Shown: one piece after another, positions 20,083 to 45,261 of the stretch
How positions within the stretch are numbered: the stretch's first letter is position 1
Layout: each line of letters opens with the position of its first letter
From: an uncultured Nitrospira sp.
GTDB lineage: Bacteria > Nitrospirota > Nitrospiria > Nitrospirales > Nitrospiraceae
DNA: 48,149 nucleotides
Reading direction: 5' to 3'
Assembly (NCBI GenBank): GCA_902500785.1
Contig: CABVRW010000027.1
Span: 1-48,149, forward strand
Position numbers and translations under genes: made by a program
Notes under the pieces: model-generated
Told to the model about the DNA's origin: nothing
Seen by the model: only the letters and a program-made list of their open reading frames with translations
Databases searched by the model: none

Positions 20083-20454
20083 TCAAACCGAGCTGTCAAT
20101 CGCTTGATCGATCTGGATGACAATCGTGCTCCTTCCAGAAAGCGGTTCCAGATCGGTGACTATGTTGTAGATCTGTTCACCGAGTATTTCTTCGATGTGT
20201 TTCTTCAACATATCGTGTCCGGTAGTGAACAACGCCTGGTGTATCTGCCGAAGTTGGCCGCAACCTTCGGGGGCTTGAGCGAGCCGAACTTCCGCCGGAA
20301 TCGGCGAGGTTCTGGTCAGGTCCACCTCGATCACATTCTCAAGAAGTCGAACCTGAACGTGCGAATAGTGCGATTGCATGAACTCCTTTTGAAAGTTCAG
20401 CACAGCCAACATGACGGCATATTCAACGTCAGCCTTGTTTCGAGTGTTGGACAT
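20083..20454 (-). CDS. mpsC: DUF2294 / MpsC-domain protein
   Basis: A 123-residue soluble protein with strong ribosome site GGGAGGA 6 nt before the ATG. The pattern ADVEYAVMLAVLNFQKEFM, VRLLENVIEVDLTRTSPIPAE, RLAQAPEGCGQLRQIHQALF and a final VTDLEPLSGRSTIVIQID matches the DUF2294 family, now called MpsC. MpsC is linked to MpsA and MpsB in the membrane-potential/bicarbonate system of Firmicutes. Here homologues of MpsA (32943) and MpsB (24296) lie on the same strand within 15 kb. The exact function of MpsC is not established. The gene symbol is by domain, not by proven orthology. Confidence 0.75.
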   Translation of the reverse strand: MSNTRNKADVEYAVMLAVLNFQKEFMQSHYSHVQVRLLENVIEVDLTRTSPIPAEVRLAQAPEGCGQLRQIHQALFTTGHDMLKKHIEEILGEQIYNIVTDLEPLSGRSTIVIQIDQAIDSSV

Positions 20455-20480
20455 TGGGTTCCTCCCGGAAGGTGGCCGGC

Positions 20481-20684
20481 TTAGACGGTCTTGCGACCTG
20501 TGCGTGGGTTTTCAAGCTTCGTGCTGAAACGGTCGCGGATGAATTCCTCGATCGACTCAGGGAGGGGACCGTTCGTCTCGTCGTGTTCAGGATAGGGGAT
20601 ACTGCAGGAGTGGATTCCCACGGGTATCTCCGAGCCGTTATGGGAGTGGTGTGTCAGTGCTTCGCTATAGGGTAGATCCATCAT
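20481..20684 (-). CDS. Small hypothetical protein upstream of mpsC-like gene
   Basis: From ATG 20684 (GGAGAG 10 nt upstream) the product is 67 residues, rich in Pro, Glu, His and Ser, with no membrane segment. An ATG at 20702 is an alternative. The C-terminal helix ESIEEFIRDRF and the 26-nt gap to the MpsC-domain gene suggest a shared transcript. No family is recognised, and it could be a non-coding frame. Confidence 0.4.
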   Translation of the reverse strand: MMDLPYSEALTHHSHNGSEIPVGIHSCSIPYPEHDETNGPLPESIEEFIRDRFSTKLENPRTGRKTV

Positions 20685-20752
20685 ACACAGAGGACTCTCC
20701 ATAAAGGGGAATCAGCGACCCTGTTGATGCTGAGCGTGGTCAGGCTGGAGTC

Positions 20753-20785
20753 GATGCGTGCCCGGCGACAGCCGAGGCACGCATC
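20753..20785 (-). terminator. Strong hairpin downstream of the split IDH genes
   Basis: A perfect 10-bp inverted repeat (GATGCGTGCC at 20753-20762, complement at 20776-20785) with an inner CGG/CCG pairing. It starts about 50 nt after the stop of the IDH C-terminal gene on the minus strand. No T-tract follows, so it may be a factor-dependent terminator or an mRNA-stabilising stem. Confidence 0.5.
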
Positions 20786-20833
20786 ACACTCACCCGTTCC
20801 AATCCACACGCCTATCGGTACGTACGGTCGCCC

Positions 20834-21184
20834 TTAGTAGGCCTTGCTGAATCCTGGCTCGCCGTCGTAGTTCCACAACTTCTGTGCCGCAGACCACCAC
20901 CAACCCTTCTTGGTTAGAGCGTCCAGAAACGTGTTGACGTCCGCGTCCTGCACGTTTTTGGTTGCCATGAACCGGCACCGGTACCAATTGACTTGCAGCA
21001 GATCGGGACTGACAAATCCGGGCCAGACTTTCGTGCCCCGGTTGGAAATAAACTCACATTTGAATGCTCCAATCTCGTCGAACTTTGGGATACCCTTCTC
21101 GGTAATGATGTACATATCGATCCCGACCAATTTAATCTCGCGTTTCTTCTTCGTCGCTTTTGCAATGTCAGTGCATGTTGGCAT
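20834..21184 (-). CDS. Separate C-terminal domain of Thermus-type isocitrate dehydrogenase
   Basis: A 116-residue protein similar to the extra C-terminal domain found fused to isocitrate dehydrogenase in Thermus and Rickettsia-type enzymes: KLVGIDMYI, then FISNRGTKVWPG, then NWYRCRFMA, DVNTFLDAL and the ending YDGEPGFSKAY. It has its own ribosome site (AAGGAG, 7 nt before ATG) and begins 38 nt after the stop of icd. It presumably binds the IDH body and may affect stability, oligomer state or regulation. The homology is from pattern recognition; the role is inference. Confidence 0.75.
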   Translation of the reverse strand: MPTCTDIAKATKKKREIKLVGIDMYIITEKGIPKFDEIGAFKCEFISNRGTKVWPGFVSPDLLQVNWYRCRFMATKNVQDADVNTFLDALTKKGWWWSAAQKLWNYDGEPGFSKAY

Positions 21185-21222
21185 GGATGTTCTCCTTGTT
21201 CATTCAGCCGGTAGTCTCGAAC

Positions 21223-22239
21223 TCAAGCCTTCTCGTGCATCTTGTCCACGATGGCTTGCGCATACTCGTCGGTCGTTGCCGTCCCGCCGACGTCGTACGT
21301 CACGTGCTTCCGCTCTTCGAGGACGGCAAACATCGCCTTGGTGATCCGATCGGCTGCGGCTTCTTCCTTCATCCAGCGGAGCATCATGATTCCAGAGACC
21401 AGCACGGCAGAGGGATTGACCTTCTTCAGCCCGGCATACTTCGGCGCAGAGCCGTGGACGGCTTCGAAGATCGCGCAGTTATCGCCCACGTTGGCGCCTG
21501 GCGCGAAGCCGAGGCCGCCGACCAGTCCGGCACAGAGATCCGTCAGGATGTCGCCATACAAATTCGGGAGCACCAGACAATCGAATTGCGCCGGATTTCT
21601 GACGAGTTGCATACAGCAATTATCCACGATGATGTCGCCGGATTCGATGTCGGGATACTTTTTGGCGACCTCTCTGAAGGCATCGAGGAAGAGTCCGTCG
21701 GTCATCTTCATGATGTTGGCCTTGTGGACGCAGTAGATCTTCTTGCGCCCATTGGCCTTGGCCCACTTGAAGGCAAACTCAGCGATGCGATAGGAGCCTG
21801 GCCAGGTGATGACTTTCAAGCATTGCGCCACCTCGTCGGACACCATATGTTCGATGGCCGCGTAGCAATCCTCGGTGTTCTCACGGAAATTCAGGATGTC
21901 GATCTTGTCCCAGGGCCGCTTGAGCACCGGAATCAGCTTGGCTGGCCGCACGTTCGCATAGAGATCGAACACCTTCCGGAGTGTCACGTTCGCGCTTTTG
22001 TGGCCAGTCCCGACCGGCGTAGTCGTAGGGCCTTTCAATGCGATCTTGTTTCTGGCGATGGCTTGGACCGTCTTGTCCGGCAGCAACGTGCCGTGCTTAT
22101 CCAAGCAGTCCAGACCGATCTCTTCGTACTCCCATTTGATATCGACGCCGCTTGCGTCGATCACCAGCCGGACCGCTTCGCAAATTTCCGGACCGGTGCC
22201 CTCTCCCGGTAACATCGTCACGACATGCTGTGTACCCAT
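21223..22239 (-). CDS. icd: Isocitrate dehydrogenase, catalytic subunit
   Basis: A 338-residue decarboxylating dehydrogenase of the IDH/IMDH family. Substrate residues are visible as Ser82 and Asn84 (HKSANVTLR), Arg88, Arg98 and Arg119 (FRENTEDCYAAIEH), in the same spacing as E. coli Ser113, Asn115, Arg119 and Arg129. The metal Asp is in LYGDILTD and the cofactor loop is HGSAPKYAG. Thermus IDH continues for about 140 residues past this point; here that part is a separate downstream gene. In autotrophs using the reductive TCA cycle the enzyme runs in the carboxylating direction. GGGAGG precedes the ATG. Confidence 0.93.
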   Translation of the reverse strand: MGTQHVVTMLPGEGTGPEICEAVRLVIDASGVDIKWEYEEIGLDCLDKHGTLLPDKTVQAIARNKIALKGPTTTPVGTGHKSANVTLRKVFDLYANVRPAKLIPVLKRPWDKIDILNFRENTEDCYAAIEHMVSDEVAQCLKVITWPGSYRIAEFAFKWAKANGRKKIYCVHKANIMKMTDGLFLDAFREVAKKYPDIESGDIIVDNCCMQLVRNPAQFDCLVLPNLYGDILTDLCAGLVGGLGFAPGANVGDNCAIFEAVHGSAPKYAGLKKVNPSAVLVSGIMMLRWMKEEAAADRITKAMFAVLEERKHVTYDVGGTATTDEYAQAIVDKMHEKA

Positions 22240-22300
22240 AAAAAACCTCCCTTAAGCAGCAAGGGGGATTGGACCATCCGCTCCCATGACTCGTTCTATT

Positions 22301-22316
22301 TGCAAATCAGGTTCCA
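22301..22316 (-). promoter_or_regulatory. Sigma-54-like promoter upstream of icd
   Basis: On the minus strand TGGAACCTGATTTGCA matches TGGCACG-N4-TTGCW at 10 of 12 informative positions with exact GG-N10-GC spacing. Transcription would start near 22290, leaving a leader of about 50 nt before icd. The only other obvious gene start near here is icd. Confidence 0.5.
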
Positions 22317-22879
22317 GACGACGTGGGTCTTACGCTTCGAACGGATAATCGAAATTCCCCCAGCAAATTCGCGAAATCTGACGAGAACGAGATCGCGTGA
22401 GGGCCGGTGTTTCTGAACAGGGCAAACCTCTCGTGTATTGACGCACGAGCCGCCCCGCGATCCGTGCATCTATGCTCGGACGTCGGATCCGTTGCTGCTT
22501 GATTCAGCTAGAAACATGTTCGGACTTGGTGAGCAGGGGAAGGCTGCAATGCTGGCTGTCTCGCTACCGGCAACCAGAAGGGCCTCTGGACCAGAAGATG
22601 CCGTGCGGAACGCGGTGGCAGTGAGTCACTCGAAGTGGGTCAGGGTTTCCCCGCACCCTTAAGGAGCGGTCGAAGTTGAGTGAACGCCGCCCCGAAAGTC
22701 TGCTCGCTGACCGGCGAAACATTCCCATAGATTGGGCGATTCGTTCTTGCACCTCGCGGGAATCTTTCTGGATGAATAAAAACGGGTAGGACTACCCGAT
22801 CCGCGACCAGATTGGATGCCGCTATCCGGGGTTTCATTGCATGCCTCTCTGTCCGAACGACCGTCGATCCCGGACGCGT
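22317..22879. other. Intergenic region between folC and icd
   Basis: About 560 nt with only short frames of poor composition and no ribosome sites. It has no recognisable gene, repeat or RNA. The gap shows that icd is not simply read through from folC. Confidence 0.5.
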
Positions 22880-24265
22880 TCATGCCTCCACTTGAGATAC
22901 CGCGGCTTGTGCGAGGGGGCGACAATAGCCTCCCAGTTCCAAGGAGCCGGTTACCACAACGAACCCAAGAGGCTCTGCTGCCAGGACGGCTCTCTGAAAC
23001 GATTCAGTGGGGTCGTTCACGATCTCCGCCGTGGTTGGCGTATAGGAGCGCCAGATAGCCGCAAGGTCCTGAGGGGCGACCGCGCGATCGTCTGGATGCC
23101 GGGTGAAGATGGCTCGGTCAGCACCTGCGCCGGCCAGTTGTCGAATGATCTTTTCGACCTCTTTCTCTCGCAGAAGCGACACGAGTAAGACCGTTCGGCG
23201 TCCTTCACGCACGCTTCGGACGGTCGACGAGAGACTGGCGGCAGCCGGGGCATTGTGGGCTCCATCGATGACGATCGTCGGACGCCCAGGGAACACTTCG
23301 CAACAAGCCGGCATGCGAACCTGCGCAAGGGTGTGGCGGAGGGCCGATCCATCTAATGTGGCGACCAGTCCGCGGCGACGGAGGACATCGTAGGCTGCGA
23401 GCGCATGCGCGGCGTTGGTGGCCATGAACGCTGCAGGGGAGTCCACTGTGATCCCTTCCCAGGTGGAGTCCCCGACCCGAAGCGTGCAGGTTCCTTGATA
23501 GCCGGCGCGTACGAACTCCTTCGTCTCGTATTCGCGTCCGATCAACAAGACTGGGGCACTCAACTGCATCGCGCGGGACAGGATCAATTCGCGAGGAGCA
23601 TCTGCCATCGGACCGCACACGACAGGGGTGAGCGGCTTGATGATTCCGGATTTCTCCGCTGCGATCTGTTCTAGGGAGTCACCCAAAACGTCCATATGAT
23701 CGTAGTCTACGTTCGTGATGATAGAGACTTCCGGGGCAATGATATTGGTGGCGTCTTGCCGCCCCCCGATTCCGACTTCGACGACGGCATAGTCCACCTT
23801 GGCCGCACGGAACGCGAAGAAAGCGGCGGAGGTGAGGAATTCGAATGGACTCATCTCGACGCCGCCCCAGTCCATGAGCGACTTGAGGTGGTTACAGGCA
23901 TCCACCAACTCTTGTTCGCTGATCGGTTCGCCGTCGACGGAGATACGCTCTCGAAAATGTCCGAGATGTGGACTGGTGAAGCGACCGACCTTCAGGCCGC
24001 TGGCTTGGATGAGGGCTGCAGTCATACGACTGACACTGGTTTTGCCGTTGGTGCCAGTCACGTGCACGGACCGATAGGCTCGGTCGGGACGTCCGAGGTC
24101 TTGCAAACATCGAGCAATGGCTTCGAAGCTCACGGTGCCATCCGAGGGCCGGCCGCCCGAAATGCAGGCGATTTCAAGTTCGCGAAAAAAGTCCATGACG
24201 TCCTTATACGAGGAGAAGGGCACGGCCCAATGGGGGAAAAGCTTCTTCGACTCCGTGTCGGGCAT
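22880..24265 (-). CDS. folC: Folylpolyglutamate synthase / dihydrofolate synthase
   Basis: A 461-residue Mur-ligase-family enzyme adding glutamate to dihydropteroate or folates. The ATP loop is GTNGKTS (71-77), followed by FTSPHLGHFRERI (the folate-binding omega loop), NVDYDHMDVLG and VIDGAHNAPAA. ATG 24265 is chosen because GAGG lies 5 nt upstream; ATG 24280 is the alternative. It begins 30 nt after the dabA stop, so it is probably the second gene of the dabA transcript. A functional link with carbon uptake is not obvious. Confidence 0.92.
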   Translation of the reverse strand: MPDTESKKLFPHWAVPFSSYKDVMDFFRELEIACISGGRPSDGTVSFEAIARCLQDLGRPDRAYRSVHVTGTNGKTSVSRMTAALIQASGLKVGRFTSPHLGHFRERISVDGEPISEQELVDACNHLKSLMDWGGVEMSPFEFLTSAAFFAFRAAKVDYAVVEVGIGGRQDATNIIAPEVSIITNVDYDHMDVLGDSLEQIAAEKSGIIKPLTPVVCGPMADAPRELILSRAMQLSAPVLLIGREYETKEFVRAGYQGTCTLRVGDSTWEGITVDSPAAFMATNAAHALAAYDVLRRRGLVATLDGSALRHTLAQVRMPACCEVFPGRPTIVIDGAHNAPAAASLSSTVRSVREGRRTVLLVSLLREKEVEKIIRQLAGAGADRAIFTRHPDDRAVAPQDLAAIWRSYTPTTAEIVNDPTESFQRAVLAAEPLGFVVVTGSLELGGYCRPLAQAAVSQVEA

Positions 24266-24295
24266 ATATACCTCGTTCATGTACGCCGCCGCCTA

Positions 24296-27200
24296 TCAGG
24301 CCTGCTCGGCGGCAACGGTCTCCGTTGTGACGGCAATCCATCCTCCCGCAGCGTTGTAGTGATAATATCGTCGTTCTCTCGGCTCAAAGGCGATCAGATG
24401 AAGCCAGCGATTGTTGAACAACTTCTCCAGCAGCGGTTGGCGATTGATGATGGCTGAAATTTGGTCCCGCGGGGCTTCGATAATCGTCGCGAGGCGCATG
24501 GGTTCGTGATACGGACGCGCACGGTTCATAACGGTCTGGACGGGCAGTCCCATCCGGAGATCGCTCTGTCCCCCTGTCATCACCCCGATACGACCCGTTA
24601 CATTGTGATAGACCTTACTACCGCTGCCATAGACCTCTGGGTCCACCGTCGAGAAGTAGTACTCCATATTGATCCATTGGGCCACGATCAGGGGTGCCGT
24701 CATGATGATCTCCAACAGCTTCCCGTCTGTGTCGGGGCGATGATCGTAGGAGTGCAGGAAGGAGCGTCCCGCAAGATCGATCCCCTGCGTCAGATGGCGG
24801 CTCCCGATAATGAACAGGCTGTTTCTCGCTAATCCCCACTCGGGACGCACTTGTGCCCAATCCAGGCTGCGGAGTTCAACATCCTGCTTCGACTGTCGAC
24901 GGTTGTGCCGAGTGGGCGTGGCGTGCAGCGCGATCCCTCGTTCTGCGGCGGCCATAGATCCGGTGTCGTTCACGTCTTCCAGCAGCTGAGCCAGCTCCTT
25001 GCGATGCGTGGAGGGCACATCTTCCAGATCCACGAGTCGGACCTGATCCGTCGTCGTGTCGTGGAGCGCCGCGAGAAAATGGGTGTCCAGGGGAATGGCC
25101 AGTCCTCGCTTCGCCAGCAACTCGCGTACCGGTGGACGGTTGGCGATCATGGCGAACGCGCGTGCGTTCGGAAGCCCGTGACTTCCTCCGCAGGCGCCGC
25201 AGTCCAAGGCCGATTCATACGGGTTGTTTTGCGAGGTGCTGCCGTGGCCGCACAGGATGACGAGGCGCGACCATGTCTCGGTCAAGCCCATGAGCCGCAG
25301 CGAGGTCTCCACGTAGTACGCCTGTTCATTGAGCGTGAATCCAGTCTGCGTGATCCGAGCGAGGCGCCCCGCCGTGCCCTGCGGCGTGATGCGACAGTGG
25401 TGGCGAAGTTCCTCGATGAGGGCTGCTTCTGTTGCTCGTGAGAGTCCGAGGATATGACCGAGGGTCCCTAGGGCCGCCGGTGGCTCATACGGCGATTCCA
25501 GCGCCTGGCACCGGATGCCTTCGAGCCGGTCAGCCGTCAGTCGAGTGCCCGAGCCCTCGAATCTCGCGCGCAGCCACCGGGCAATCTGCATCCGTTGCTC
25601 GGCCGCGACCATGTCTTCCGCTTCGTTGGTGGGGATCTTATCCACCGTCAACGTGGTCGCCACCGTCGGGATGAACGTCTGCTTCACCCAGGTCGCCAGT
25701 CGATGATACCCACGAGGACACAGCGTCTTCCCCAACAACGGCAACACGAAGAACCATCCGATGGCTTCCACCATGACATACGGCGTGATCACATTGTGCT
25801 TAAGGTCATGGAGTAGTTTATGTCCGGTCTTGACCAGCTGCGTACTGGATTTGTGTCGTAACGCGGCCTCGCCCTGGTATGTCCTCGGGACCTCTCGAAT
25901 CGTATGTTTCGGCTTGAGGAGCACCGGACACAGGTCCGTCGTGCAGTCCGCACCCAACGCCCGATAGGCCACGGGCAAGCCGAAGAATCCGGCAAAGCCG
26001 AAGGTCTCATAGCAACCGCGCTGCTCGAGATGCCGGCGAAAGACTTCGGATCGAACATCAATACAAAATGCGAACTGCGCCGGGGGGCGCACAGGGCTTC
26101 CTTCTCGTCCCTGCAGGCCGGCGTCACCGGGCGCGCGCGATTCGAGTTGTCGCAGGATCGTGTGCTGGTGCGCGAGTTCGTAGGCGTCGAGCCACCTGGG
26201 ACCGTGCTGCCGTTCAGGGAATGCACCGAGCCAGTTCAGCAGTGTCTTCAGATCGGTCGGCGCCGTCGATGGGAGAAGGTCTGGCCTGACATCGAGGGCC
26301 TCAGCCAGCCGCAACAAAAGGCGCGCATGGTTGATGGCCGTCTCTCCTCGGCACACAAGCCGGTGCTCGCGGTACCAGTGTTGAGCCAGCTCCTCCCACG
26401 CCTGGGCATCCGACGATCGCCACCATCGCTGAAGCCTCACGGCATCCGTCGAGGCTTTCTTCGGGAGCTGTCCATTCAGGAGCGCGCGACGGAACCAGAT
26501 CGCGCGGGGAAACCGTCGCGCATAATCCTGAATTGCTTCGACATCCCCTGAGCAGTTCAAGACTTTCTTGCAGGAGACCGCCACCAATTCCCGTTCATAG
26601 AACAGACGAATGGCGAGATATTTCACCAAGTCGATGCGATAGGCCTCCTGCCAAGGATACGCCGTTTGCTCCGCACGCCATTTGATGAATCCAGCCCATC
26701 CCGGCAAGGCCGCTACATGGCGCGAGAGATATTCCTCCCTCGCCGAGGCGGGGATCTTCAGTTGTTCAAGTGCCTCCAGGAGGGCTTCTTCAGGGCGGTC
26801 GGATAAGAGTCGAATCTTTTCCGACGCCCGTTCGATTCCGAGCAAGGACAATCCCAGGTCATACTGCGCCGCGTCCTTCCAGGCACGGTAGAATGTGTGT
26901 TCGCGGCCGGGCATAGGCCAGGTGGCGTCCCCCTCGTCGCAGAAAGCGGCGCACCATTTGATCAGTTGGCCGTTGATCTGGTCCTCAAGGTCGGTTCCGA
27001 ACGTTCGATCGCACCAGGCCGCCATCGTTGTCCGGTAGGGCAACTCCTCCGATTCACCCATGCGCAGGCTTTCATTCTCGCCCCAGGTATCGGAATCCGG
27101 AATCGACGCAAGCCACTGCGTCAGTCGTGTGAGCGATTCCGTGTTCTCGTCCGGCGATGGGGCTCCAGCTGAGGCGGATCGGCCAGGGGACGATGGCTCC

Positions 27201-27568
27201 ACTCCATGCACCATCACTGCACGGAGCACATCCAGGTGGAACAGCCGACGATCGCCGAAGAGGATGTGTGTTTCTGTGGCCAGCGGACGTAACGCTTCAT
27301 CCACATGCCAGGGTTGGATGCGGCCGCGTCGAAACGCTTCGCGATACGCGTCACAGGATAAATATCCCCGTCCCCCAAAGAGCTGTTCTCCCCGCCGCAC
27401 GGCCTCGTCGAAGGTGAGCTGTTCAAACCCCTGCAGCGGATTTCTCGAGATGAATGTCCGCATCGGCCAGAGACGCGCCACCACCTCACCCGCAAGGTTG
27501 ACATAGGAGCGCAACTCCATCCGCTGTGCGTCGGTATAGGATGTCGGCCTGTCGTTCGCTTGTGCCAT
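24296..27568 (-). CDS. dabA: DabA / MpsB (DUF2309) inorganic carbon transporter subunit
   Basis: A 1090-residue protein related to the beta-carbonic anhydrase-like DabA. The predicted zinc site is Cys502 and Asp504 (FCIDVRSE) with His775 (CGHGSTS) and Cys790 (ALDCGACGG). The Cys-x-Asp and His-x14-Cys spacings equal those of Halothiobacillus DabA2 (C351/D353, H524/C539). It is about 260 residues longer than that protein, including about 100 extra residues between the two halves of the site. With DabB it is thought to convert CO2 to bicarbonate vectorially, driven by cation flow. An unusual element lies about 40 nt upstream; folC follows. Confidence 0.92.
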   Translation of the reverse strand: MAQANDRPTSYTDAQRMELRSYVNLAGEVVARLWPMRTFISRNPLQGFEQLTFDEAVRRGEQLFGGRGYLSCDAYREAFRRGRIQPWHVDEALRPLATETHILFGDRRLFHLDVLRAVMVHGVEPSSPGRSASAGAPSPDENTESLTRLTQWLASIPDSDTWGENESLRMGESEELPYRTTMAAWCDRTFGTDLEDQINGQLIKWCAAFCDEGDATWPMPGREHTFYRAWKDAAQYDLGLSLLGIERASEKIRLLSDRPEEALLEALEQLKIPASAREEYLSRHVAALPGWAGFIKWRAEQTAYPWQEAYRIDLVKYLAIRLFYERELVAVSCKKVLNCSGDVEAIQDYARRFPRAIWFRRALLNGQLPKKASTDAVRLQRWWRSSDAQAWEELAQHWYREHRLVCRGETAINHARLLLRLAEALDVRPDLLPSTAPTDLKTLLNWLGAFPERQHGPRWLDAYELAHQHTILRQLESRAPGDAGLQGREGSPVRPPAQFAFCIDVRSEVFRRHLEQRGCYETFGFAGFFGLPVAYRALGADCTTDLCPVLLKPKHTIREVPRTYQGEAALRHKSSTQLVKTGHKLLHDLKHNVITPYVMVEAIGWFFVLPLLGKTLCPRGYHRLATWVKQTFIPTVATTLTVDKIPTNEAEDMVAAEQRMQIARWLRARFEGSGTRLTADRLEGIRCQALESPYEPPAALGTLGHILGLSRATEAALIEELRHHCRITPQGTAGRLARITQTGFTLNEQAYYVETSLRLMGLTETWSRLVILCGHGSTSQNNPYESALDCGACGGSHGLPNARAFAMIANRPPVRELLAKRGLAIPLDTHFLAALHDTTTDQVRLVDLEDVPSTHRKELAQLLEDVNDTGSMAAAERGIALHATPTRHNRRQSKQDVELRSLDWAQVRPEWGLARNSLFIIGSRHLTQGIDLAGRSFLHSYDHRPDTDGKLLEIIMTAPLIVAQWINMEYYFSTVDPEVYGSGSKVYHNVTGRIGVMTGGQSDLRMGLPVQTVMNRARPYHEPMRLATIIEAPRDQISAIINRQPLLEKLFNNRWLHLIAFEPRERRYYHYNAAGGWIAVTTETVAAEQA

Positions 27569-27607
27569 GCTGCTGACCCCCTCCCTTCTGTCCTGCTACA
27601 CCCAACA

Positions 27608-27624
27608 CAGCAAGAAGAGGGCCG
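27608..27624 (-). promoter_or_regulatory. Sigma-54-like element upstream of dabA, shared with dabB
   Basis: Minus strand CGGCCCTCTTCTTGCTG, with GG-N10-GC geometry and a perfect TTGCT, 9 of 12 consensus positions. It differs at two positions from the element at 34665-34681 before dabB. Predicted start near 27598, giving a leader of about 30 nt. Confidence 0.5.
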
Positions 27625-27836
27625 CGACACGATATCCCTTCCATGGAGGAACGTAAGCGCCTCGTGAATAAGGGAAAACCGATGACAGGCGTCATCGAAC
27701 GGCCAACGAGAATCGATCCACTCGCCGAAGAATCAGTGCGTCAACACACGTGCGTGCATGCCTGCACGCAGCCACGGCCACGGATTGGAAGCATCGGGGA
27801 AGTTGGGGCGGAGTATTTCGCTCGCACGGCAAGCGG
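27625..27836. other. Rest of the cysD-dabA intergenic region
   Basis: About 210 nt between the cysD-like stop and the dabA promoter element. No gene or terminator hairpin was recognised. Confidence 0.5.
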
Positions 27837-28634
27837 TTACATATGTCCGAGTTTGCGGAGCGTTTCCATTCCGCGGCCTTCGTCCTGCGCGCGCCCTGCG
27901 CGTTCGGCGGTCGTGGTGCTCCGCAACTCGATGATGACCTGCGGAATCGTCTTTGCGCAGGAGTTCACGGTGCCCGTGCAGGGCACGCAGCCAAGGCTGC
28001 GGTAGCGAGTGCCGGCGCCTCGATCGAAATATAGTTCCGGAAGGGGAACCCGTTCCTGTTCGAGGTATTCCCAGATATTCAGCTCGGTCCAGTCGAGCAG
28101 CGGATGCACGCGCACATGAGAACCAGCAGGAAATGTCGTCTTGTATTGATCCCAGAGTTCGGGCGGCTGATCGCGGTAATCCCATTCCCCATGTTTGTCC
28201 CGGAGAGAGAAGCAGCGTTCTTTGGCTCGCGTGCCTTCCTCGTCCGCGCGAATGCCGAGAATGACGGCCGTCCACCCATGTTTGGCGATCGTGTGCTTGA
28301 GGGCCTCGATTTTCATGGCCGTGCAGCAGGTGACGCGCCCCTGCTCAGGGCCCATCCCGCCAGCGAGCGCCTCCGTATTCTGACCGACGACCAGCTTGAG
28401 CCCCCACTCGCGGCAGAGCCGGTCCCGATAGTCGATTAACTCGGGGATCTCGTAGCCCGTGTCGATATGCACGAGCGGAAACGGCACATGACCGAAGAAG
28501 GCCTTTCTGGCCAGCCACAACAGCACCGTCGAGTCCTTGCCCATCGACCAGAGCATGGCGAGGTCGTCGAAGTGTTTGTAGGCTTCGCGAAGAATGTAGA
28601 CGCTCTGATCTTCAAGTTCTCTCAGGTGCTGCAT
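27837..28634 (-). CDS. cysD: CysD-like sulfate adenylyltransferase subunit 2
   Basis: A 265-residue PP-loop ATP pyrophosphatase. [17 protein letters not shown] (near 30-46) is the PP-loop, VHIDTGYE follows, then [13 protein letters not shown] and the closing [10 protein letters not shown], all in CysD order. CysD normally makes APS with the GTPase CysN, but no cysN is in this window. It is shorter than E. coli CysD (302). It has extra cysteines ([11 protein letters not shown], and CVPC then SC in the segment after YRSLG) where E. coli CysD has other residues. It overlaps the preceding broken larB-like frame by 13 nt. A sulfonucleotide reductase-like activity is an alternative. Confidence 0.8.
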
Positions 28635-28924
28635 GGGTCTGCTCCTCTTTCATAAGATTCCGGCTCGGAGAACGTTCGATTCGACGCGAGGTCGACCAGA
28701 TGGAGTCCTTCGAAGTGTGCCGCTGTGTGCCGCACTGTCATCCGTCCGATCGATCCCTCCTCCGTGATGCACAGGTCTCCCTCCTCGTTGTGTGCGATGG
28801 TGGTCCACAGAGCATAACCGAGATCGACGATCGGGAGATCCTTCAACCCGCGCTGCGCGTCCTCGAGCCTCAGGCCACCGGCACGGACAGGCTCGAGGAG
28901 GCCCGGGAGAGCGGAGGCATCCAC
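28622..28924 (-). pseudogene. larB: Broken larB-like fragment
   Basis: The frame from GTG 28924 reads LLEPVRAGGLRLEDAQRGLK, then DLPIVDLGYAL, which matches the N-terminus of LarB (NCAIR mutase-related, makes the nickel-pincer cofactor of lactate racemase). At about 28808 the next residues of the family, VDHHRT, are present but in another frame. The rest of the frame to 28622 does not match LarB. So this looks like a 5' remnant with a frameshift, running into the cysD start. Genuine small protein is the alternative. Confidence 0.5.
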
Positions 28925-28959
28925 GGTGTTGCGTTGCCGATCGGGAGGTCGATCAGCGG

Positions 28960-30366
28960 TTAATCCGTTTGTTTTCGACGCCGGTCCAGCATCCAGCGCG
29001 TGATGCCGAGATGTTTGGCGGCCAAGGTCTTGTTGCCGTCTGACCGTTGCAACACCTCGGCAATGATTCGATCTTCGAGATCGTTCAGCGAGTGCTCTCC
29101 GACTCGGAAGGAGATCTGGACGGCGGTAGGATCGGACGCATCCGGCGCAGGCATCGGATGTTTCGGTGAAACGGCCGCCAACGGCTGGCTCGCGCCTTGA
29201 AGCTCGGAGGGAAAGTTGGCGGCTTCGAGGGTTGTGCCTTGGCAGAATAGAACGGCCCGTTCCATGAGATTGCTCAGCTCACGGATATTGCCGGGGAAGC
29301 GATACTGGCGCAAGAGGGCCTGTGCGCTTGCTCCCAATGTACGGACCGGTTTCTTGAGCGCCACCGCAGAACGAATGAGAAATTGCTCGGTGAGAGGAAT
29401 GATCTCGTCGCCTCGTTCGCGGAGCGGCGGGACGGTGAGCGTCACGACATTGAGCCGATAGTAGAGATCCTCGCGAAACTCGCCCTTCGCGACTGCGTCC
29501 TTGAGATCGCGATTCGTCGCGGCCATGAAGCGGACATCCACCGGGATGGTAGCCGCTCCTCCGACGCGACGCAACGTCCGTTCCTCGATCACCCGTAAGA
29601 GCTTCGCCTGCAGGGGGAGCGGCAAGTCGCCGATCTCATCGAAGAAAACGGTTCCCCCTTCGGCCAGTTCGAGCAGGCCGCATTTCCGTCCTGAGGCCCC
29701 CGTAAACGACCCTTTCTCATGGCCGAACAATTCGCTCTCGAACAATTCGCGCGGAATTGAAGGACAATCTACTTCCATGCACGGCTTGTCTGCCCGGGGA
29801 CTGTTGAAATGGATCACGCGCCCCATGTACTGCTTGCCGGTCCCGGTTTCTCCTTGGAGGAGGACCGTTACGCGAGCGCTCTTGGCCAGTTCTCGAACCT
29901 CCTGCATAAACGTCTGCATGGCAGGACTGTTCGCGATGATGCGATCGATCGCATAGCGCTTTGCATCCTGGCTGCTGTGCAGTTGGACCTGCCGGCGAAG
30001 CGTGAGTAGATCCGTCGCGCGGCGCAGGGTGTGGTGGAGATCGTCCATGTCTATGGACTTGGCCACAAAATCGAAGGCCCCGAGTCGCATCGCTTCGACC
30101 GCATCCTTCACTGTCCCTCTGGCGGTCAGCACGATCACGAGAAGCTCCGGTGTGGTTTGTTTCACCCGGGCGAGGACGTCCAGGCCAGAGAAGTTGGGCA
30201 TGATCAGGTCCAGCACCAGGATATCCGGCTCGAAGGAGCGCAGGATGGTGAGGGCGTCTTCTCCCGATCCCGCGGTTTGGACGAGGTAGCCTTGGCCGGT
30301 GAGACGCAGGGCGAAGGCCTCCCGAACGGATGCTTCATCCTCGACCAGTAGAAGTTGCCATGCCAT
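28960..30366 (-). CDS. Sigma-54-dependent response regulator (NtrC family)
   Basis: A 468-residue regulator. The receiver (1-120) has the acidic pair Glu9/Asp10, phospho-acceptor Asp53 (VLDLIMPNFSG) and Lys103. The AAA+ domain has Walker A GETGTGK (172-178), the sigma-54-contact loop as GSFTGA (219-224; the usual form is GAFTGA) and Walker B VFFDEIG. The C-terminal Fis-type helix-turn-helix is DGNKTLAAKHLGITRWML. Its histidine kinase gene ends 1 nt before its ATG. Sigma-54-like sites upstream of dabA, dabB and icd make these its candidate targets; this is inference. Confidence 0.93.
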   Translation of the reverse strand: MAWQLLLVEDEASVREAFALRLTGQGYLVQTAGSGEDALTILRSFEPDILVLDLIMPNFSGLDVLARVKQTTPELLVIVLTARGTVKDAVEAMRLGAFDFVAKSIDMDDLHHTLRRATDLLTLRRQVQLHSSQDAKRYAIDRIIANSPAMQTFMQEVRELAKSARVTVLLQGETGTGKQYMGRVIHFNSPRADKPCMEVDCPSIPRELFESELFGHEKGSFTGASGRKCGLLELAEGGTVFFDEIGDLPLPLQAKLLRVIEERTLRRVGGAATIPVDVRFMAATNRDLKDAVAKGEFREDLYYRLNVVTLTVPPLRERGDEIIPLTEQFLIRSAVALKKPVRTLGASAQALLRQYRFPGNIRELSNLMERAVLFCQGTTLEAANFPSELQGASQPLAAVSPKHPMPAPDASDPTAVQISFRVGEHSLNDLEDRIIAEVLQRSDGNKTLAAKHLGITRWMLDRRRKQTD

Positions 30367-30367
30367 G

Positions 30368-32332
30368 TCAGCCCTCGCATTTCAATGGAAGCCAGACGTC
30401 CACGACGGCTCCGCTCTCAGGCGGACTGTGAATCAGCAATTGGCCGCCGTGCCGCTCGATAATGTCGTGGGTAATGGTCAGCCCAAGACCGACACCCTTG
30501 GCTTTTCCATTCGTAAAGAACGGTTCGTAAATGCGTTGCAGGTTTTCGGGGGAGATGCCTTTCCCGGAATCGGCAAAGGTCATGAGCAGCCCCAGCCCTC
30601 GTCTGGTCTCCGGCCTGAGGGTGATCGTCAATTGGCCGCCGTTCGGCATCGCGTCGATCGCATTCATGGCGATATTCAGACAAACCTGGAGGATATGGGC
30701 CCGCGAGGCTTCCACCAATGGAAGGTCCGCGGCCACGTTTTTCTTCACAGCCACGCGATGCTTTAACAAGTTCGGGTGCAGCAACGTCAGGGTGTTGTCA
30801 AGCAGCGCGGATAGATCACAGGAGGCGATCTCAAAGGGGCGTGGCCGCAACTGTCCAAGGTGAGATTCCAGAAGATCGTCGATCCGCGCCGCTTCGCGCG
30901 CGATCAAGCGGCACCGATCGCGCGCGGCTTGAGGAAGCGTGTCCTGGTCCGCCAGATGGGTGGCGAGGCTCCCGAGTCCGATCAGAGGATTGCGGACTTC
31001 GTGGAGGATGCCGCCGGCGAGTTGCCCGACGAGTTTCACCTGTTCCGTATGGCGCAGGGCCTCGAGCATCTGTTCTCGCTCGCTGAGGTCGGTCAGGATG
31101 GCAAGAAAGTAGCGGATGGTCCCGTCCGGGTCTTTGACCGGGCTCACGCTCTCCCACGCCAAAAACTCAGAGCCGTCCTTGCGGCGGTTCACCACACGGT
31201 CGACGAAGGCCGATCCGGACTGGATCGTCTGCCACATGCGTTCGAAGAATTCCGGCGGGTGCTTTCCGGACTTCAGCAACGACGGTGTGCGGCCGATGAC
31301 CTCATGCCGTGTCCAGCCTGTCAGACGTTCCATGGCGGGATTCCACTCCAGGAGCGCCCCTTGCGTATCGGTCAACATGACGCCGTCCTGCACCAACTCG
31401 AACATCCGGTGATAGAGCTGTAGCTGCGTTTCCTCTCGCCGCCATCGTTCGAGTACGGTGGCGACAGTGTTGGCGACCGAGCAGAGAAACTCCAACTCCT
31501 TCGGGGTAAAATCCCGCACGGACTTGCAGTGTGCGCCCATGACTCCGTACACCCGATCCTGTACCATCATCGGCACGCTCATGCCGGCGATGCCATTATG
31601 TTCCGACAGGAGCTTCGACGGCATGAAGCGCGTTTCTGTGTGCAAATCCCGCACGACTACCGGCTGCCGTTCGCGGATTGCAAAGCCCGCCTGAGAATGC
31701 GTGCCTCCTTCCACCGTTAAGGTGCCGATGAGCCCCTCGCGCCAGCCGACGCCGGCGACGAGATACAGATGTTCATCCGATTCACGAGGAATGAGGATTT
31801 TGCAGAGTTCCACGTGCAAAGCCTCGGCCGTGAGGCGCGCGGCTTGGTTCATGATCTCTTGGACCGGTGTTCCACTGACCGCCAGGGTCCCGATGCGCGC
31901 GAGGACTGACTGAAACCGGACCACCTGGGCGGCTTCTTGTGACAGTAGAGTCCGCTCCGTGACGTTTTCCAACACCATCAACACGCCCGTGTTGCCGCAA
32001 TAGGGGACGACGTTGAACCGGCATTCGTAAATGAGGGGATAGCCCTGTCGATCAGTCAGCCGATACTCCGTTGTGTCACGGGCTCCGAGCGGTTGGTGAT
32101 TCCTGGCTATCGCCTCATCGAGAAGTCGCGTCCGTAGCTGAAATTCCGACCCCGGTTGGGGCGCCCAGACCAGTTCTCCAAACTGCGCGTTTTCGAAAAT
32201 CAGGGTGCCGTGGGACACAAAACAGAGGCCGCCCTGGATGCAGTCACTGAGCCAGGCCAGGCCTTGCTCCGCGGCGACTTCCGATGGCGCCTGAGTGGAT
32301 GGCTTGGGACGTGATCGACGGAAGGATGGCAT
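30368..32332 (-). CDS. PAS-GAF-PAS sensor histidine kinase
   Basis: A 654-residue kinase with no clear membrane segment, so probably cytoplasmic. Order: an N-terminal PAS-like region (about 25-130), a GAF domain (about 150-305, VPMMVQDRVYGVMGAHC), a PAS domain (about 320-440, LTDTQGALLEWNPAMERLTG), then HisKA with the phospho-His444 (HEVRNPL) and HATPase_c (NIAMNAIDA, DSGKGIS, GVGLGLTI). GAF and PAS domains suggest a small-molecule or redox cue. The regulator follows after 1 nt, so they form one unit. Confidence 0.93.
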   Translation of the reverse strand: MPSFRRSRPKPSTQAPSEVAAEQGLAWLSDCIQGGLCFVSHGTLIFENAQFGELVWAPQPGSEFQLRTRLLDEAIARNHQPLGARDTTEYRLTDRQGYPLIYECRFNVVPYCGNTGVLMVLENVTERTLLSQEAAQVVRFQSVLARIGTLAVSGTPVQEIMNQAARLTAEALHVELCKILIPRESDEHLYLVAGVGWREGLIGTLTVEGGTHSQAGFAIRERQPVVVRDLHTETRFMPSKLLSEHNGIAGMSVPMMVQDRVYGVMGAHCKSVRDFTPKELEFLCSVANTVATVLERWRREETQLQLYHRMFELVQDGVMLTDTQGALLEWNPAMERLTGWTRHEVIGRTPSLLKSGKHPPEFFERMWQTIQSGSAFVDRVVNRRKDGSEFLAWESVSPVKDPDGTIRYFLAILTDLSEREQMLEALRHTEQVKLVGQLAGGILHEVRNPLIGLGSLATHLADQDTLPQAARDRCRLIAREAARIDDLLESHLGQLRPRPFEIASCDLSALLDNTLTLLHPNLLKHRVAVKKNVAADLPLVEASRAHILQVCLNIAMNAIDAMPNGGQLTITLRPETRRGLGLLMTFADSGKGISPENLQRIYEPFFTNGKAKGVGLGLTITHDIIERHGGQLLIHSPPESGAVVDVWLPLKCEG

Positions 32333-32465
32333 AGACGTGGATTACTCCGTTCTGTAGCGTAGAGGAGCGAAACAGCTGTCGTCCTTGAACGGGCAGTATA
32401 CCCAGTCTGGCGCAGACCGTCGAGACAGGCATCGGCGCATGCGGCGGACAGGGCGACCGGCCCTA

Positions 32466-32795
32466 TTATTTGGCGACAAAGTGCTCGCGACGGCTGACCG
32501 CGACGTCGGTGACGAACATCGCTCCGGAATGCTTGTTGAACAACGGCCCCAGGCCGGCCAGAATCGGTTCGACCCGCTCTTCCGGCACCACCGTGAAGAC
32601 AATCACCTGACTGCTGATATCGTTGAACAACAAATGGCCCTCATGGAAGCCGTGCTGGCCTTTGCCGGACACATTGTTGATGATCGTATAGCCGGTGGCG
32701 CCGACTCGATCCAGCAGGTCGGTGATAAACTTCGCGTGCTCGCCTTGGACCACGATTTTGATTTCTTTCATGGGATGCAGGGTTAAGCTGATCAT
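32466..32795 (-). CDS. PII-like protein next to DabB
   Basis: A 109-residue protein of the PII/GlnB fold: KEIKIVVQGEHAKFITDLLD, a GATGYTIINNVSGKGQHG loop region, VIVFTVVPEERVEPILAGL and a final strand FVTDVAV. The start at 32795 follows AAGGAGG by 6 nt; ATG 32771 is an alternative. PII-like proteins (for example SbtB, CPII) are known to sense adenylates or bicarbonate next to inorganic-carbon transporters. Its place 147 nt downstream of dabB fits that role. The uridylylation T-loop tyrosine of GlnB is not evident. Confidence 0.8.
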   Translation of the reverse strand: MISLTLHPMKEIKIVVQGEHAKFITDLLDRVGATGYTIINNVSGKGQHGFHEGHLLFNDISSQVIVFTVVPEERVEPILAGLGPLFNKHSGAMFVTDVAVSRREHFVAK

Positions 32796-32942
32796 GCGAC
32801 CCTCCTTGTTTCCAACAGGTTCTTCTGTTTAGTCCGTCGTGCTCATACAACCCGCGACGCCGAGGATCATCCCATTCGTTGACAGTGACAAGTGCACCGA
32901 CTTCCCGTCACTAACGGACAGGCTCTCTTCAGGAGTGGCTCA

Positions 32943-34622
32943 TTAGTGTGATCGAACGGTCTTCCGTCGCGAGCGCCTTCCCCAGGCTCGCAGTACATCC
33001 TCCACATAGAGGCCGTTGAGAAACGCGACATAGGCACGGGTCTGGATGGTCCCCAGCCAGCCGGGGATCAAGAGCCGCATGCCATGAGCCTTGCCGTAAA
33101 GAAACATCCACACCGCGACGACGAGTACCGTCGCAAGGGCGACAAACGTCTCGAAGAGGCCGGAGGGCCAGGATGCTGCCTGAAAATAGGCTGCCGCCTG
33201 ACCCGGTTCGGCATAGAGAAAATGGGTGAACGATTCACCGGCCCACAAGTAGGTTAGTCCGATCAGTGCGAGCGTCGCCACCATCGTCAAGGACACGTTC
33301 CACGAGGCCGTCGCGTTCAGCTGATAGAGGCTGAAGATCGCTTGGGCTGAGGTGACCCAGGCAAAGAACAGGAAAATCAACGTGCCCTGCGATTCGAACA
33401 GAGGGATGTGCACCAGGCCGTGGGCGACGAGGAGGAGGAGCAACGGCAGGATCAAGGTGATTCCCAAACCGGTCGCCCAGGTCACCAACGAGAAGCGAGT
33501 CGTTTCTTCCACGGGCTCGCGCTCCGGAAGCTGGGACTCGTTCCGCGCTTTCTGAATAGTGGCTCCCGAATTGAGAAATAAGGTGGCCTTGAACAGGCCA
33601 TGGGCACAGAGGTGAAACACCGCGAGGGCGAAGGCCCCCAAGCCACATTCCATGACCATGTAGCCCATCTGTCCCATGGTGGAATAGACGAGCGTCCGTT
33701 TGATGCTGGATTGGGTCAGCATCGTGGTGGCTCCGATCAAGGCGGTCAGACCTCCGATGAGAAACATCAGATGGAGCGACGTCGGAGCGACGCCGTACAG
33801 CGGGGCCAAGCGGTTGACCAGAAATCCACCGGCATTGACGATCCCCGCGTGTAGCATGGCCGAGACGGGAGTCGGCGCCTCGATGGTTCCCGGCAACCAC
33901 ACGTGGAAGGGGAATTGGGCGGATTTCGTCATGATCGCGATCAAGAGCAAGAGCGTAATCACCGTGACGGAGTTGCTCTCAAAGACTGTTCCAACCCAAA
34001 GAAGAGGCGCAACAGACGATTGGATGGCACGGAACAATTCCGTGAGATCGAGCGTTCCGAATTTGAGGTAGATCAGGAGAATGCCGAGCAGCAAGGCCGC
34101 ATCACCGAGTCCTTGTACCCGCAAGGCCGTGTGTCCTGCCTTGCGGGCTGCGTGGCTCGTCGCATTGAACGAGAGCAGGGCCATCAGCAACCAGGTAACA
34201 GCGTGCCAATGGACGAACAGCCAGAACAGATTTCCACTGGTCACCAAACTCAAGAGCACAAAGGTCAGCAGGCTGAGTAGGCTGAAAAATCGAACATAGC
34301 CCTGGTCGCCTTGCATGTAGCGCTGTGAATACAGGTGAATCACCAGGCTCACACCCGTGATGAGGACCATCATGACGGCAGCAAGCCGATCAATCAGGAC
34401 CGTGTACTGAATAGACCTGGGAAGGAAGACGGAAAATGCGAGGAATATAGGCTCGCTCTGAACGACGTGATAGAGAGAAGCGAGTGTCGCGACTGTTGAG
34501 AGCGCCAGAGCGCTGACTCCGAAACTGGAGGTCCTCTCGCCCAATCTGGTTCCGAGGAGAGCGGTCAGGCCGCTGGCCAGGAGGGGCGCAAAGACCGCAA
34601 TAATCGGGAAAAGAAAATCCAT
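32943..34622 (-). CDS. dabB: DabB / MpsA (NuoL-like) membrane cation channel subunit
   Basis: A 559-residue polytopic protein of the NuoL/MrpA (proton-conducting transporter) family, with roughly 14 membrane segments. MTKSAQFPFHVWLPG then EAPTPVSAMLHAGIVNAGGF is the conserved core. There are no other complex I genes nearby, so it is not a respiratory subunit but the DabA partner, thought to supply cation flow. I chose ATG 34622 (AGGA 6 nt upstream); ATG 34670 would fall inside the promoter element. DabA lies 5.4 kb further along instead of adjacent, which is unusual. Confidence 0.88.
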   Translation of the reverse strand: MDFLFPIIAVFAPLLASGLTALLGTRLGERTSSFGVSALALSTVATLASLYHVVQSEPIFLAFSVFLPRSIQYTVLIDRLAAVMMVLITGVSLVIHLYSQRYMQGDQGYVRFFSLLSLLTFVLLSLVTSGNLFWLFVHWHAVTWLLMALLSFNATSHAARKAGHTALRVQGLGDAALLLGILLIYLKFGTLDLTELFRAIQSSVAPLLWVGTVFESNSVTVITLLLLIAIMTKSAQFPFHVWLPGTIEAPTPVSAMLHAGIVNAGGFLVNRLAPLYGVAPTSLHLMFLIGGLTALIGATTMLTQSSIKRTLVYSTMGQMGYMVMECGLGAFALAVFHLCAHGLFKATLFLNSGATIQKARNESQLPEREPVEETTRFSLVTWATGLGITLILPLLLLLVAHGLVHIPLFESQGTLIFLFFAWVTSAQAIFSLYQLNATASWNVSLTMVATLALIGLTYLWAGESFTHFLYAEPGQAAAYFQAASWPSGLFETFVALATVLVVAVWMFLYGKAHGMRLLIPGWLGTIQTRAYVAFLNGLYVEDVLRAWGRRSRRKTVRSH

Positions 34623-34664
34623 GGGCCATCCTACTGTGGTGGTTCGTGATGTTGGAGACCGTAT

Positions 34665-34681
34665 CAGCAAGAATAGGACCG
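34665..34681 (-). promoter_or_regulatory. Sigma-54-like element upstream of dabB, shared with dabA
   Basis: Minus strand CGGTCCTATTCTTGCTG, matching the dabA element at 15 of 17 positions and keeping GG-N10-GC. It lies 42 nt before ATG 34622 (39 nt for dabA). Predicted start near 34655. Confidence 0.5.
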
Positions 34682-38433: not shown

Positions 38434-39345
38434 ATGAGAATGGCGTCGAGGAGGACAACGGGCTGCGTGTTGTTGCCCACCGACTTTCAGCGGCCGGCAC
38501 GACGGGCGTTTGCGTATGCCCTGAAGCTTGCGCGGGTGCTCGGATCACGGCTGGAGATCATTCACGTGATCAAAACCATGTCTGAGTCATCACGGCGTGC
38601 CCCCGACAGCCGCTATCTGAACTCCCTCAAAACCTCCGCGTTGCTCGAACTGGGACGCATGGCGAGCGTGGCGAAGGAGGGCGGGCTCCATGCGGACCCC
38701 TCCCTCCTGTTCGGGCTCCCTCCCGACTGTATTCTGGAGGAGGCGGCCCGGTTACAGGCGGGGCTCATCGTCATGGGAACCGAAGGACGGACCGGGTGGG
38801 ATCGCTTGCGCCTCGGCAGCACAGCGCACACCGTCTTCTCTCAGGCCTCCTGCCCGGTACTCGCCGTCCACGGAGGGCTCGCCGGAGATGTCGCTCGGCT
38901 CTCTGCCCGAGTGAAGCTGACACGACTGCTGGCCGCGACGGACTTTTCTCCTTGCGCGGCACAATCGCTGCAAGTTGTTTCCACGCTGGCGAAGTTGACG
39001 CAGGCCAAGGTCTGCGTCGTGCACGTCGTCAGCAATGGCACAGGCAAACAAGACGGGCAGCGGAAACTGAATATCCTGACGGAGAGACTTCGGCGACAAG
39101 GCCTTGATGTGGAAGTGGTTTGCATCACGGGCCCACCGATCGAGACCATTCTGAGGCAGGCGGCCGGATGGGAAGCTGACGTGCTCGCCGTTGGAACGCA
39201 AGGCCGTCGGGGGCTCTCTCGATTGCTACTGGGCAGTGTCGCCGAGGGAGTTCTGCGGCGGGCAGGTTGTCCCGTGCTGGTCGTGAAGAACGCGGTGCGG
39301 TTCGTCGGCGCGGAAACACGACGCCGACAGAAACACCCACGCTGA
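38434..39345 (+). CDS. Tandem universal stress protein (UspA x2)
   Basis: A 303-residue protein with two UspA domains. Each has the ATP-binding pattern G-x2-G-x9-[20 protein letters not shown] near 110 and [15 protein letters not shown] near 256. Fused pairs like this are common in stress-responsive operons. ATG 38440 is an alternative start. The stop overlaps the start of the antiporter gene by 1 nt (TGATG), showing coupled translation. Confidence 0.9.
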
Positions 39346-40829
39346 TGACACTGACGATTGAGTATCTGCTTCTCGGCACGTCAGGATTGTTGTTGTTGAG
39401 CGTGATCGCCAGCAAAGCGTCCAGCCGCCTCGGGGTACCTGTCCTATTGCTCTTCCTCCTCATCGGGATGCTCGCCGGGTCCGATGGGCTGGGCGGTATT
39501 CACTTCGATGATCCCTGGCTGGCCCAGTCGCTTGGCGTGGTGGCACTGACGTTTATCCTGTTTGCGGGCGGTATGGATACCGAGTGGAGCAGCGTTTGGG
39601 CGCAGCTAGGGAAGGGCATGGCGCTCTCGACTCTGGGCGTGGCGACCACCGCGGGGCTGGTCGGATGGTTTGCCAGGACGATCCTAGGGATGTCATGGCT
39701 GGAGGGGCTGCTGATCGGCGCCATTGTCTCCTCGACCGACGCGGCCGCCGTCTTCGCCGTCATGCGGTCACGGCAGGTGAGTCTTCGCAGCCCGTTGAAA
39801 CCGCTGCTCGAACTTGAATCCGGCAGCAACGACCCGATGGCGGTGTTCCTCACCATCGGGCTGATCAGTCTACTCACCGGGGCCTCCACGTCGGTGACCG
39901 ACTTGCTTCCCATGTTTGTACGCCAAATGGTGCTCGGCGCCGCCATCGGGTACGGCATCGGCAAGGTGATGGTGTTGCTGATCAACCGGTTGCGGCTCGA
40001 ATATGACGGACTCTATCCGGTGTTGACCGTGTCTCTGGTTCTGCTGACCTACAGCGGCAGCGCCTGGCTGGGCGGAAACGGATTTCTCGCGGTATACCTC
40101 GCCGGACTGATGGTGGGCAACAGCGAGTTCCTCCACAAACGCAGCCTCACGCGGTTTCATGACGGACTGGCGTGGCTGATGCAGATCGCCATGTTTCTGA
40201 CGCTCGGATTGCAGGTGTTTCCCGCGCAACTCGTGCCCGTCGCCGGAACAGGACTGCTCCTGGCGCTGTTCCTGATGGTCGTCGCCCGTCCGGCTGCCGT
40301 GTTCCTGATGCTGGCGTTCACCGCTCTCAGTCTGCGCGAAAAGACGATGGTCGCCTGGGTCGGTTTGCGCGGAGCCGTGCCGATCATTCTTGCCACGTTT
40401 CCGCTCCTCGCCGGCATTGCGCAGGCCACGATGATGTTCAACCTGGTGTTCTTCATCGTTCTGACATCCGTCCTGCTCCAGGGCACGTCGATCCCGCTGG
40501 TCGCGCGCTGGCTTAAGGTGGAAGCGCCGCTGCCGCGGCGGCTCGAGGCCTCGCCGGTTTGGAATGCGCCAACCGGTCTCAAGAGCGGGTTGGTCGAAAT
40601 GACCATCCCCGAATCTTCCGTGGCGGCCGGTCAACGGCTGCTCGATCTCGGCCTGCCCAAGTCCACGCTCGTCATCCTGATCGGGCGGAAGGGGCAGTGT
40701 TTCGTCCCGGACGGCAGCACCGTGTTGGAGGACAACGACTCGTTATTGATTTTTACCGATCAGGCCTCTTCCTTCCGGCTCCGTGCCATCGTGGAAGCCA
40801 GGTGTCACCCTGGGCAAAAGAGGGAATAG
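39345..40829 (+). CDS. CPA1-type K+(Na+)/H+ antiporter with TrkA-C domain
   Basis: A 494-residue membrane protein. Residues 1-390 hold about 12 membrane segments of the NhaP/CPA1 family, with [14 protein letters not shown] and [16 protein letters not shown] carrying the conserved ion-binding acidic residues. The C-terminal part (about 420-490, [20 protein letters not shown]) is a TrkA-C (RCK_C) regulatory domain, as in NhaP2/CvrA. It likely exports K+ or Na+ in exchange for H+. It is translationally coupled to the stress protein gene. Shorter than E. coli CvrA (578). Confidence 0.88.
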
Positions 40830-40893
40830 GCGGGGCGTTATCAACCGGTTAAGAAGGAGTCACCGCGTCGTGACAGACAAAAGGGGAGGAATA

Positions 40894-45021: not shown

Positions 45022-45217
45022 GGGCGCATGTCCCGCAAGGTAACGCGGCATGGGTCCTGATCGGTCCTCGTGGTGAGGAACCGCCGACGCTGAATGTCGG
45101 ATCGGAGGGGATTACGCCATGCTGAGGGGGGTATTGGTTCTCAGCGAGCCGGACAGCGTGTTGATGACCGTAGGATACGGGCCGGGCATGTGGCTGGTGT
45201 CCCGGATCGGCGGCTGA
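45018..45217 (+). other. Two chained micro-ORFs before the second ATPase
   Basis: ATG 45018 opens a 35-codon frame ending at TGA 45123. ATG 45119 (GGAGGGG 8 nt upstream) opens a 32-codon frame (LVLSEPDSVLMTVGYGPGMW) ending at TGA 45215. Starts and stops overlap. They may be remnants of one gene broken by frameshifts, or leader peptides. No family is recognised. Confidence 0.3.
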
Positions 45218-45261
45218 TGGGCCAGCGTCATGTATCCGAACGAGTTCGAGAGGAGACGGAT

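What the first reader, a model, noticed from the sequence alone, without database searches (positions are those of the whole stretch)
20834..22239. Isocitrate dehydrogenase split into catalytic and C-terminal genes
The C-terminal extension that is fused in Thermus-type IDH is encoded as a separate 116-residue protein with its own ribosome site, 38 nt downstream. Either the fission gives a regulatory subunit, or it preserves the ancestral unfused state.
Basis: partly seen in the sequence, partly recalled or inferred. Interest (0 to 1): 0.6.

Follow-up and report, generated by a model that had tools for sequence, protein, structure and literature searches.

The report
Two-gene (split) isocitrate dehydrogenase
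In Nitrospira and relatives, the two parts of an enzyme that other bacteria make as one protein are made by two neighbouring genes that always travel together, and the second gene looks like a separate partner subunit of the enzyme, which I found nowhere described.

Summary
On the minus strand lies a 338-aa isocitrate dehydrogenase (IDH, 21223-22239) and, 38 nt downstream in another frame with its own Shine-Dalgarno, a 116-aa protein (20834-21184) homologous to the C-terminal domain fused in Thermus/Rickettsia-type ('subfamily IV') IDH (PF18324, E 5e-15). It is not a frameshift: 56 of 57 named relatives in Nitrospira, Leptospirillum and five Bacillota (Dethiobacter-related) keep the same order as separate ORFs. 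In 175 family genomes 42 have both genes, 130 neither, and the three exceptions are contig edges, a fragment or a pseudogene. In trees, split and fused IDHs are sister clades. So recent fission is not supported, but the trees cannot tell an ancient fission from an unfused ancestor. The split domain lacks a segment corresponding to the first helix of the fused one. I infer an obligate hetero-oligomer (IDH dimer plus two small subunits); no complex was modelled. Nitrospira also carries a monomeric IDH, so here it is a second IDH, often near inorganic-carbon-uptake genes. Verdict: real, conserved, apparently undescribed; a new variant of a known IDH subfamily, of moderate interest.

The parts
21223..22239 (-). 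IDH catalytic subunit, 338 aa, beta-decarboxylating dehydrogenase family; Lys-Tyr at the E. coli IDH 344/345 positions predicts NADP+
20834..21184 (-). small protein, 116 aa, stand-alone PF18324 domain (subfamily IV IDH C-terminal/clasp domain), lacking a segment that aligns with the first helix of the fused form
21185..21222 (-). 38-nt spacer between the IDH stop and the small gene's ATG, with Shine-Dalgarno AAGGAG
24296..27568 (-). neighbour: DabA (PF10070), inorganic carbon transporter subunit; found near the pair in 17 of 56 related loci
28960..30366 (-). neighbour: sigma-54 response regulator; orthologue (59% identity) beside the pair in Leptospirillum-type loci
20083..20454 (-). neighbour: MpsC-family protein (PF10057); another MpsC member lies near the pair in L089

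Best explanation
A two-gene form of subfamily IV isocitrate dehydrogenase. The upstream gene makes the catalytic subunit, predicted NADP+-dependent. The downstream gene makes the clasp domain as a separate small subunit, with its own ribosome site. Inferred mechanism: two small subunits dock on the IDH homodimer where the fused C-terminal domain sits in Thermus IDH, stabilising or tuning the dimer, so the enzyme is an obligate hetero-oligomer (probably alpha2-beta2). Inferred role: isocitrate/2-oxoglutarate interconversion, in Nitrospira and Leptospirillum plausibly in the reductive TCA cycle. Shown: homology, separate coding, conservation, near-perfect genetic linkage. Inferred: physical complex, stoichiometry, cofactor, reaction direction, co-transcription.
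For: PF18324 and 2d1c matches; predicted fold best matches the 2d1c C-terminal domain. IDH is directly upstream on the same strand in 56 of 57 named loci; the exception is a pseudogene relic. In 175 family genomes 42 have both genes and 130 neither. N. moscoviensis carries two complete pairs and G056 two pairs, one cut by a contig end. Distances of the two proteins correlate, r = 0.90 (partly expected from shared ancestry). Homologous domains are one chain in Thermus-, Deinococcus-, Bernardetia- and Bacillota-type IDH. HGSAPKYAG motif shared with Thermus IDH. Clasp role of the fused domain: PMC3521221.
Against: No complex was modelled or measured. The structure model of the small protein is moderate (pLDDT 75) and the IDH model, run without an alignment, failed (pLDDT 42). 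The split domain lacks a helix segment present in the fused form, so docking may differ. Most Nitrospira also carry a monomeric IDH, so necessity is unclear there. The mirror-tree correlation does not separate interaction from linkage.
Confidence: 0.75

Rival explanations
1. The small protein is a dispensable or independently acting regulator (ferredoxin-like/ACT-like fold) that binds a metabolite and switches the IDH on or off, rather than a constant structural subunit.
For: Separate gene allows independent dosage; the fold search also lists ACT- and PII-like ferredoxin folds at Z 3.4-6; inorganic-carbon uptake genes and a two-component system lie near many loci.
Against: Those fold scores are in the range of common arrangements. 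No IDH of this clade was found without the small gene except at a contig edge, which argues for an obligate part. The homologous fused domain is described as a clasp (PMC3521221).
Confidence: 0.2
2. Origin by ancient fission (compatible with the best explanation of function): the common ancestor of the split and fused clades had the fused gene, and the split lineage broke it apart and lost the linker and the first helix.
For: Split and fused are sisters (97/92); the fused clade is the more diverse, and both fused subgroups retain the helix segment.
Against: Split is not nested inside fused; the C-domain tree separates the two on one long branch and has no outgroup. An unfused pair followed by one fusion needs the same number of steps.
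Confidence: 0.45
3. Sequencing frameshift or pseudogene of a fused IDH.
For: None beyond proximity of the two ORFs.
Against: Same split in dozens of independent genomes with three relative frames and conserved ribosome sites; strong purifying selection.
Confidence: 0.01

Closest known systems
Subfamily IV isocitrate dehydrogenase (Thermus thermophilus IDH, PDB 2D1C; Rickettsia-type; NCBIfam PRK09222/TIGR02924)
   Same: Same two domains in the same order; same Lys-Tyr cofactor motif as Thermus; sister clade in the catalytic-domain tree
   Different: Two genes instead of one ~480-500 aa chain; the linker is absent and the split domain lacks a segment aligned with the first helix; catalytic domain only 39-51% identical
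Unfused bacterial IDH of Nitrospirota and Pseudomonadota (PRK08997-like, e.g. PDB 6M3S)
   Same: Catalytic subunit of similar length, up to 55% identical; PRK08997 is the top NCBIfam hit, below its cut-off
   Different: The sampled Nitrospirota genomes that hold these IDHs had no PF18324 match; 6M3S has Asp-Ile at the cofactor site; separate branch of the tree
Mitochondrial IDH3 (alpha with beta/gamma)
   Same: Hetero-oligomeric IDH encoded by several genes; related catalytic fold
   Different: Its regulatory subunits are themselves dehydrogenase-fold paralogues, not a small PF18324 protein

Membership tests
Subfamily IV IDH (PMC3521221) | Iso_dh catalytic domain related to Thermus/Rickettsia IDH | tested here: met
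   PF00180 2e-101; best PDB hit 2d1c 8.8e-104; sister to fused clade 97/92
Subfamily IV IDH (PMC3521221) | Extended C-terminal region of ~100 residues in the same chain, 480-500 aa per chain | tested here: not met
   Domain is encoded by a separate gene
Subfamily IV IDH (PMC3521221) | C-terminal (PF18324) domain forms a clasp over the homodimer | not testable with these tools
   Complex not modelled; only the isolated domain fold was compared
PF18324 Isocitrate_DH_C_bact | Score above the curated cut-off | tested here: met
   56 bits against 25
NADP+-dependent IDH | Lys-Tyr at E. coli IDH 344/345 positions (site known from the literature, from my own knowledge) | tested here: met
   HGSAPKYAG in all split members aligned; cofactor use itself not measured

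The most novel reading that the evidence does not exclude
The separate clasp subunit is a dosage- or signal-controlled switch that sets the direction of the reaction, letting rTCA autotrophs such as Nitrospira and Leptospirillum drive reductive carboxylation of 2-oxoglutarate when inorganic carbon supply changes.
Probability: 0.12. Interest if true: 0.75.

Novelty: new variant of a known kind. Interest (0 to 1): 0.5.

Why it matters
It adds an apparently undescribed two-gene architecture to a central-metabolism enzyme in globally important nitrite oxidisers and iron oxidisers. It makes the role of the subfamily IV clasp domain directly testable, because it can be added or left out. If the small protein is an obligate subunit, expressing the IDH gene of these bacteria alone would give an incomplete enzyme. 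It also shows that many Nitrospira hold two unrelated IDHs.

Tried and rejected
Frameshift/pseudogene: rejected. Viral versions: none in two viral-contig scans; one weak plasmid hit was a fused Deinococcus gene. Other IDH types in the genus: no TIGR00183 or TIGR00127 at the limits used. A first tree that kept long-branch rows did not join split and fused, and holding them together was rejected there (AU p 0.003). I then removed the long-branch rows and repeated; the sister relation comes from those trees and depends on that choice. Grouping split with the unfused Nitrospirota IDHs was not clearly rejected (AU p 0.06). Literature: no paper found naming a split or two-subunit bacterial IDH of this kind (open-access library only). 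No neighbours shared with the window in the Bacillota loci.

Full report
Observation. The minus strand carries a 338-aa IDH at 21223-22239 and a 116-aa ORF at 20834-21184. The gap is 38 nt; an AAGGAG precedes the second ATG; the frames differ. The IDH matches Iso_dh PF00180 at 2e-101 and, among solved structures, Thermus IDH 2d1c best. The small protein matches PF18324, the bacterial IDH C-terminal domain, at 4.9e-15 and residues 385-492 of 2d1c at 1.1e-9. Its predicted structure (pLDDT 75) matches 2d1c 370-491 first, Z 9.0 over 107 residues, against 6.3 for the next row. The rmsd of that match is high (6.8), so this supports the assignment made by sequence rather than proving a fold on its own.

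Reality of the split. In the loci read in detail the small ORF starts after the IDH stop (overlapping it in L111) with relative frames 0, 1 and 2, gaps of about 10-45 nt and a purine-rich ribosome site. Nineteen equal-length orthologues differ from the window mostly at third codon positions (136/70/908). A sequencing error or programmed frameshift is therefore excluded.

Distribution. PF18324 occurs in 53 of 395 sampled genomes of the phylum; all matches are stand-alone except one 521-aa fused protein in G267. In the family, 44 of 175 genomes have the small gene and 43 the IDH; 42 have both. The exceptions are G419 (IDH at a contig end), G260 (a 36-residue fragment) and G175 (small gene with an internal stop and no IDH). 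A scan of named genomes returned 57 loci in Nitrospira, Leptospirillum and related Nitrospirota and five Bacillota (Dethiobacter-related); IDH lies directly upstream in 56, two of them cut by contig ends. That scan reported exactly 80 candidate stretches, which equals its limit, so further members may exist. Nitrospira moscoviensis has two complete pairs (L075, L084). Within the class of the Bacillota members, five genomes have the split form and four a fused one.

Other IDHs. In the genus, 28 of 29 genomes carry a monomeric IDH (PF03971), the window's genome included, so the split IDH is a second IDH there. Five Leptospirillum-family genomes, five Bacillota genomes and G125 have the split pair and no PF03971 match; whether they hold yet another IDH type was not tested.

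Evolution. In the catalytic-domain tree (44 rows, long-branch rows removed), split IDHs form one clade (100/99), fused IDHs another (95/92), and the two are sisters (97/92) apart from IDHs without the domain. An earlier tree that kept the long branches did not recover this join and rejected it, so the sister relation should be held with some caution. The C-domain tree separates split from fused completely but has no outgroup. Recent fission is not supported; ancient fission and an ancestral unfused pair are both open. The Bacillota members sit inside the Nitrospirota split clade, which suggests lateral transfer.

Anatomy. The alignment shows that split proteins lack a segment of about 10-12 residues after the first strand that is present in fused ones; the model of the small protein has no helix there. 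Conserved in both forms are NRG (NHG in one), RCR and the region around the C-terminal DGE/SKA. In Thermus IDH the extension is described as a larger second clasp over the dimer (PMC3521221).

Mechanism. The most economical reading is an obligate small subunit that supplies the clasp in trans. Co-occurrence, co-duplication, co-loss and fused homologues support functional linkage; they do not show a physical complex. Mirror-tree r = 0.90 is compatible but partly due to shared descent.

Context. In the window the pair lies downstream of a FolC-like gene and DabA, with antiporter (DabB-like) and sigma-54 two-component genes further on, and an MpsC-family gene downstream. Among 56 related loci DabA is near in 17; the response regulator orthologue is near in 20, including 15 of 17 Leptospirillum-like loci (groups were assigned by me from record titles and similarity). 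This suggests, and only suggests, a link with inorganic carbon assimilation. rTCA use by N. moscoviensis and high abundance of 'isocitrate dehydrogenase' there are reported in PMC8407350, without stating which IDH in the passages read.

Noticed in passing
L112 / G175:C13:135214-135450: Pseudogene of the small gene (internal stop) with the IDH gone, while DabA, the sigma-54 regulator and kinase homologues remain beside it: a relic of loss of the pair.
   Followed up: partly
L104, L107, L108, L109, L111: The split pair in Dethiobacter-related Bacillota nests inside the Nitrospirota clade, suggesting transfer between phyla; other members of the same class have the fused form.
   Followed up: partly
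L075 and L084 (NZ_CP011801.1): Nitrospira moscoviensis carries two complete split IDH pairs, about 9% apart in IDH and 17% in the small protein.
   Followed up: partly
window 20083-34670 (-): MpsC-family, DabA, proton-antiporter (DabB-like) and sigma-54 two-component genes lie around the pair, resembling an inorganic carbon uptake island.
   Followed up: partly
window 40783-43767 and 45094-47931 (+): Two large cation-transporting P-type ATPases close together, near a Na+/H+ exchanger (39267-40829).
   Followed up: no
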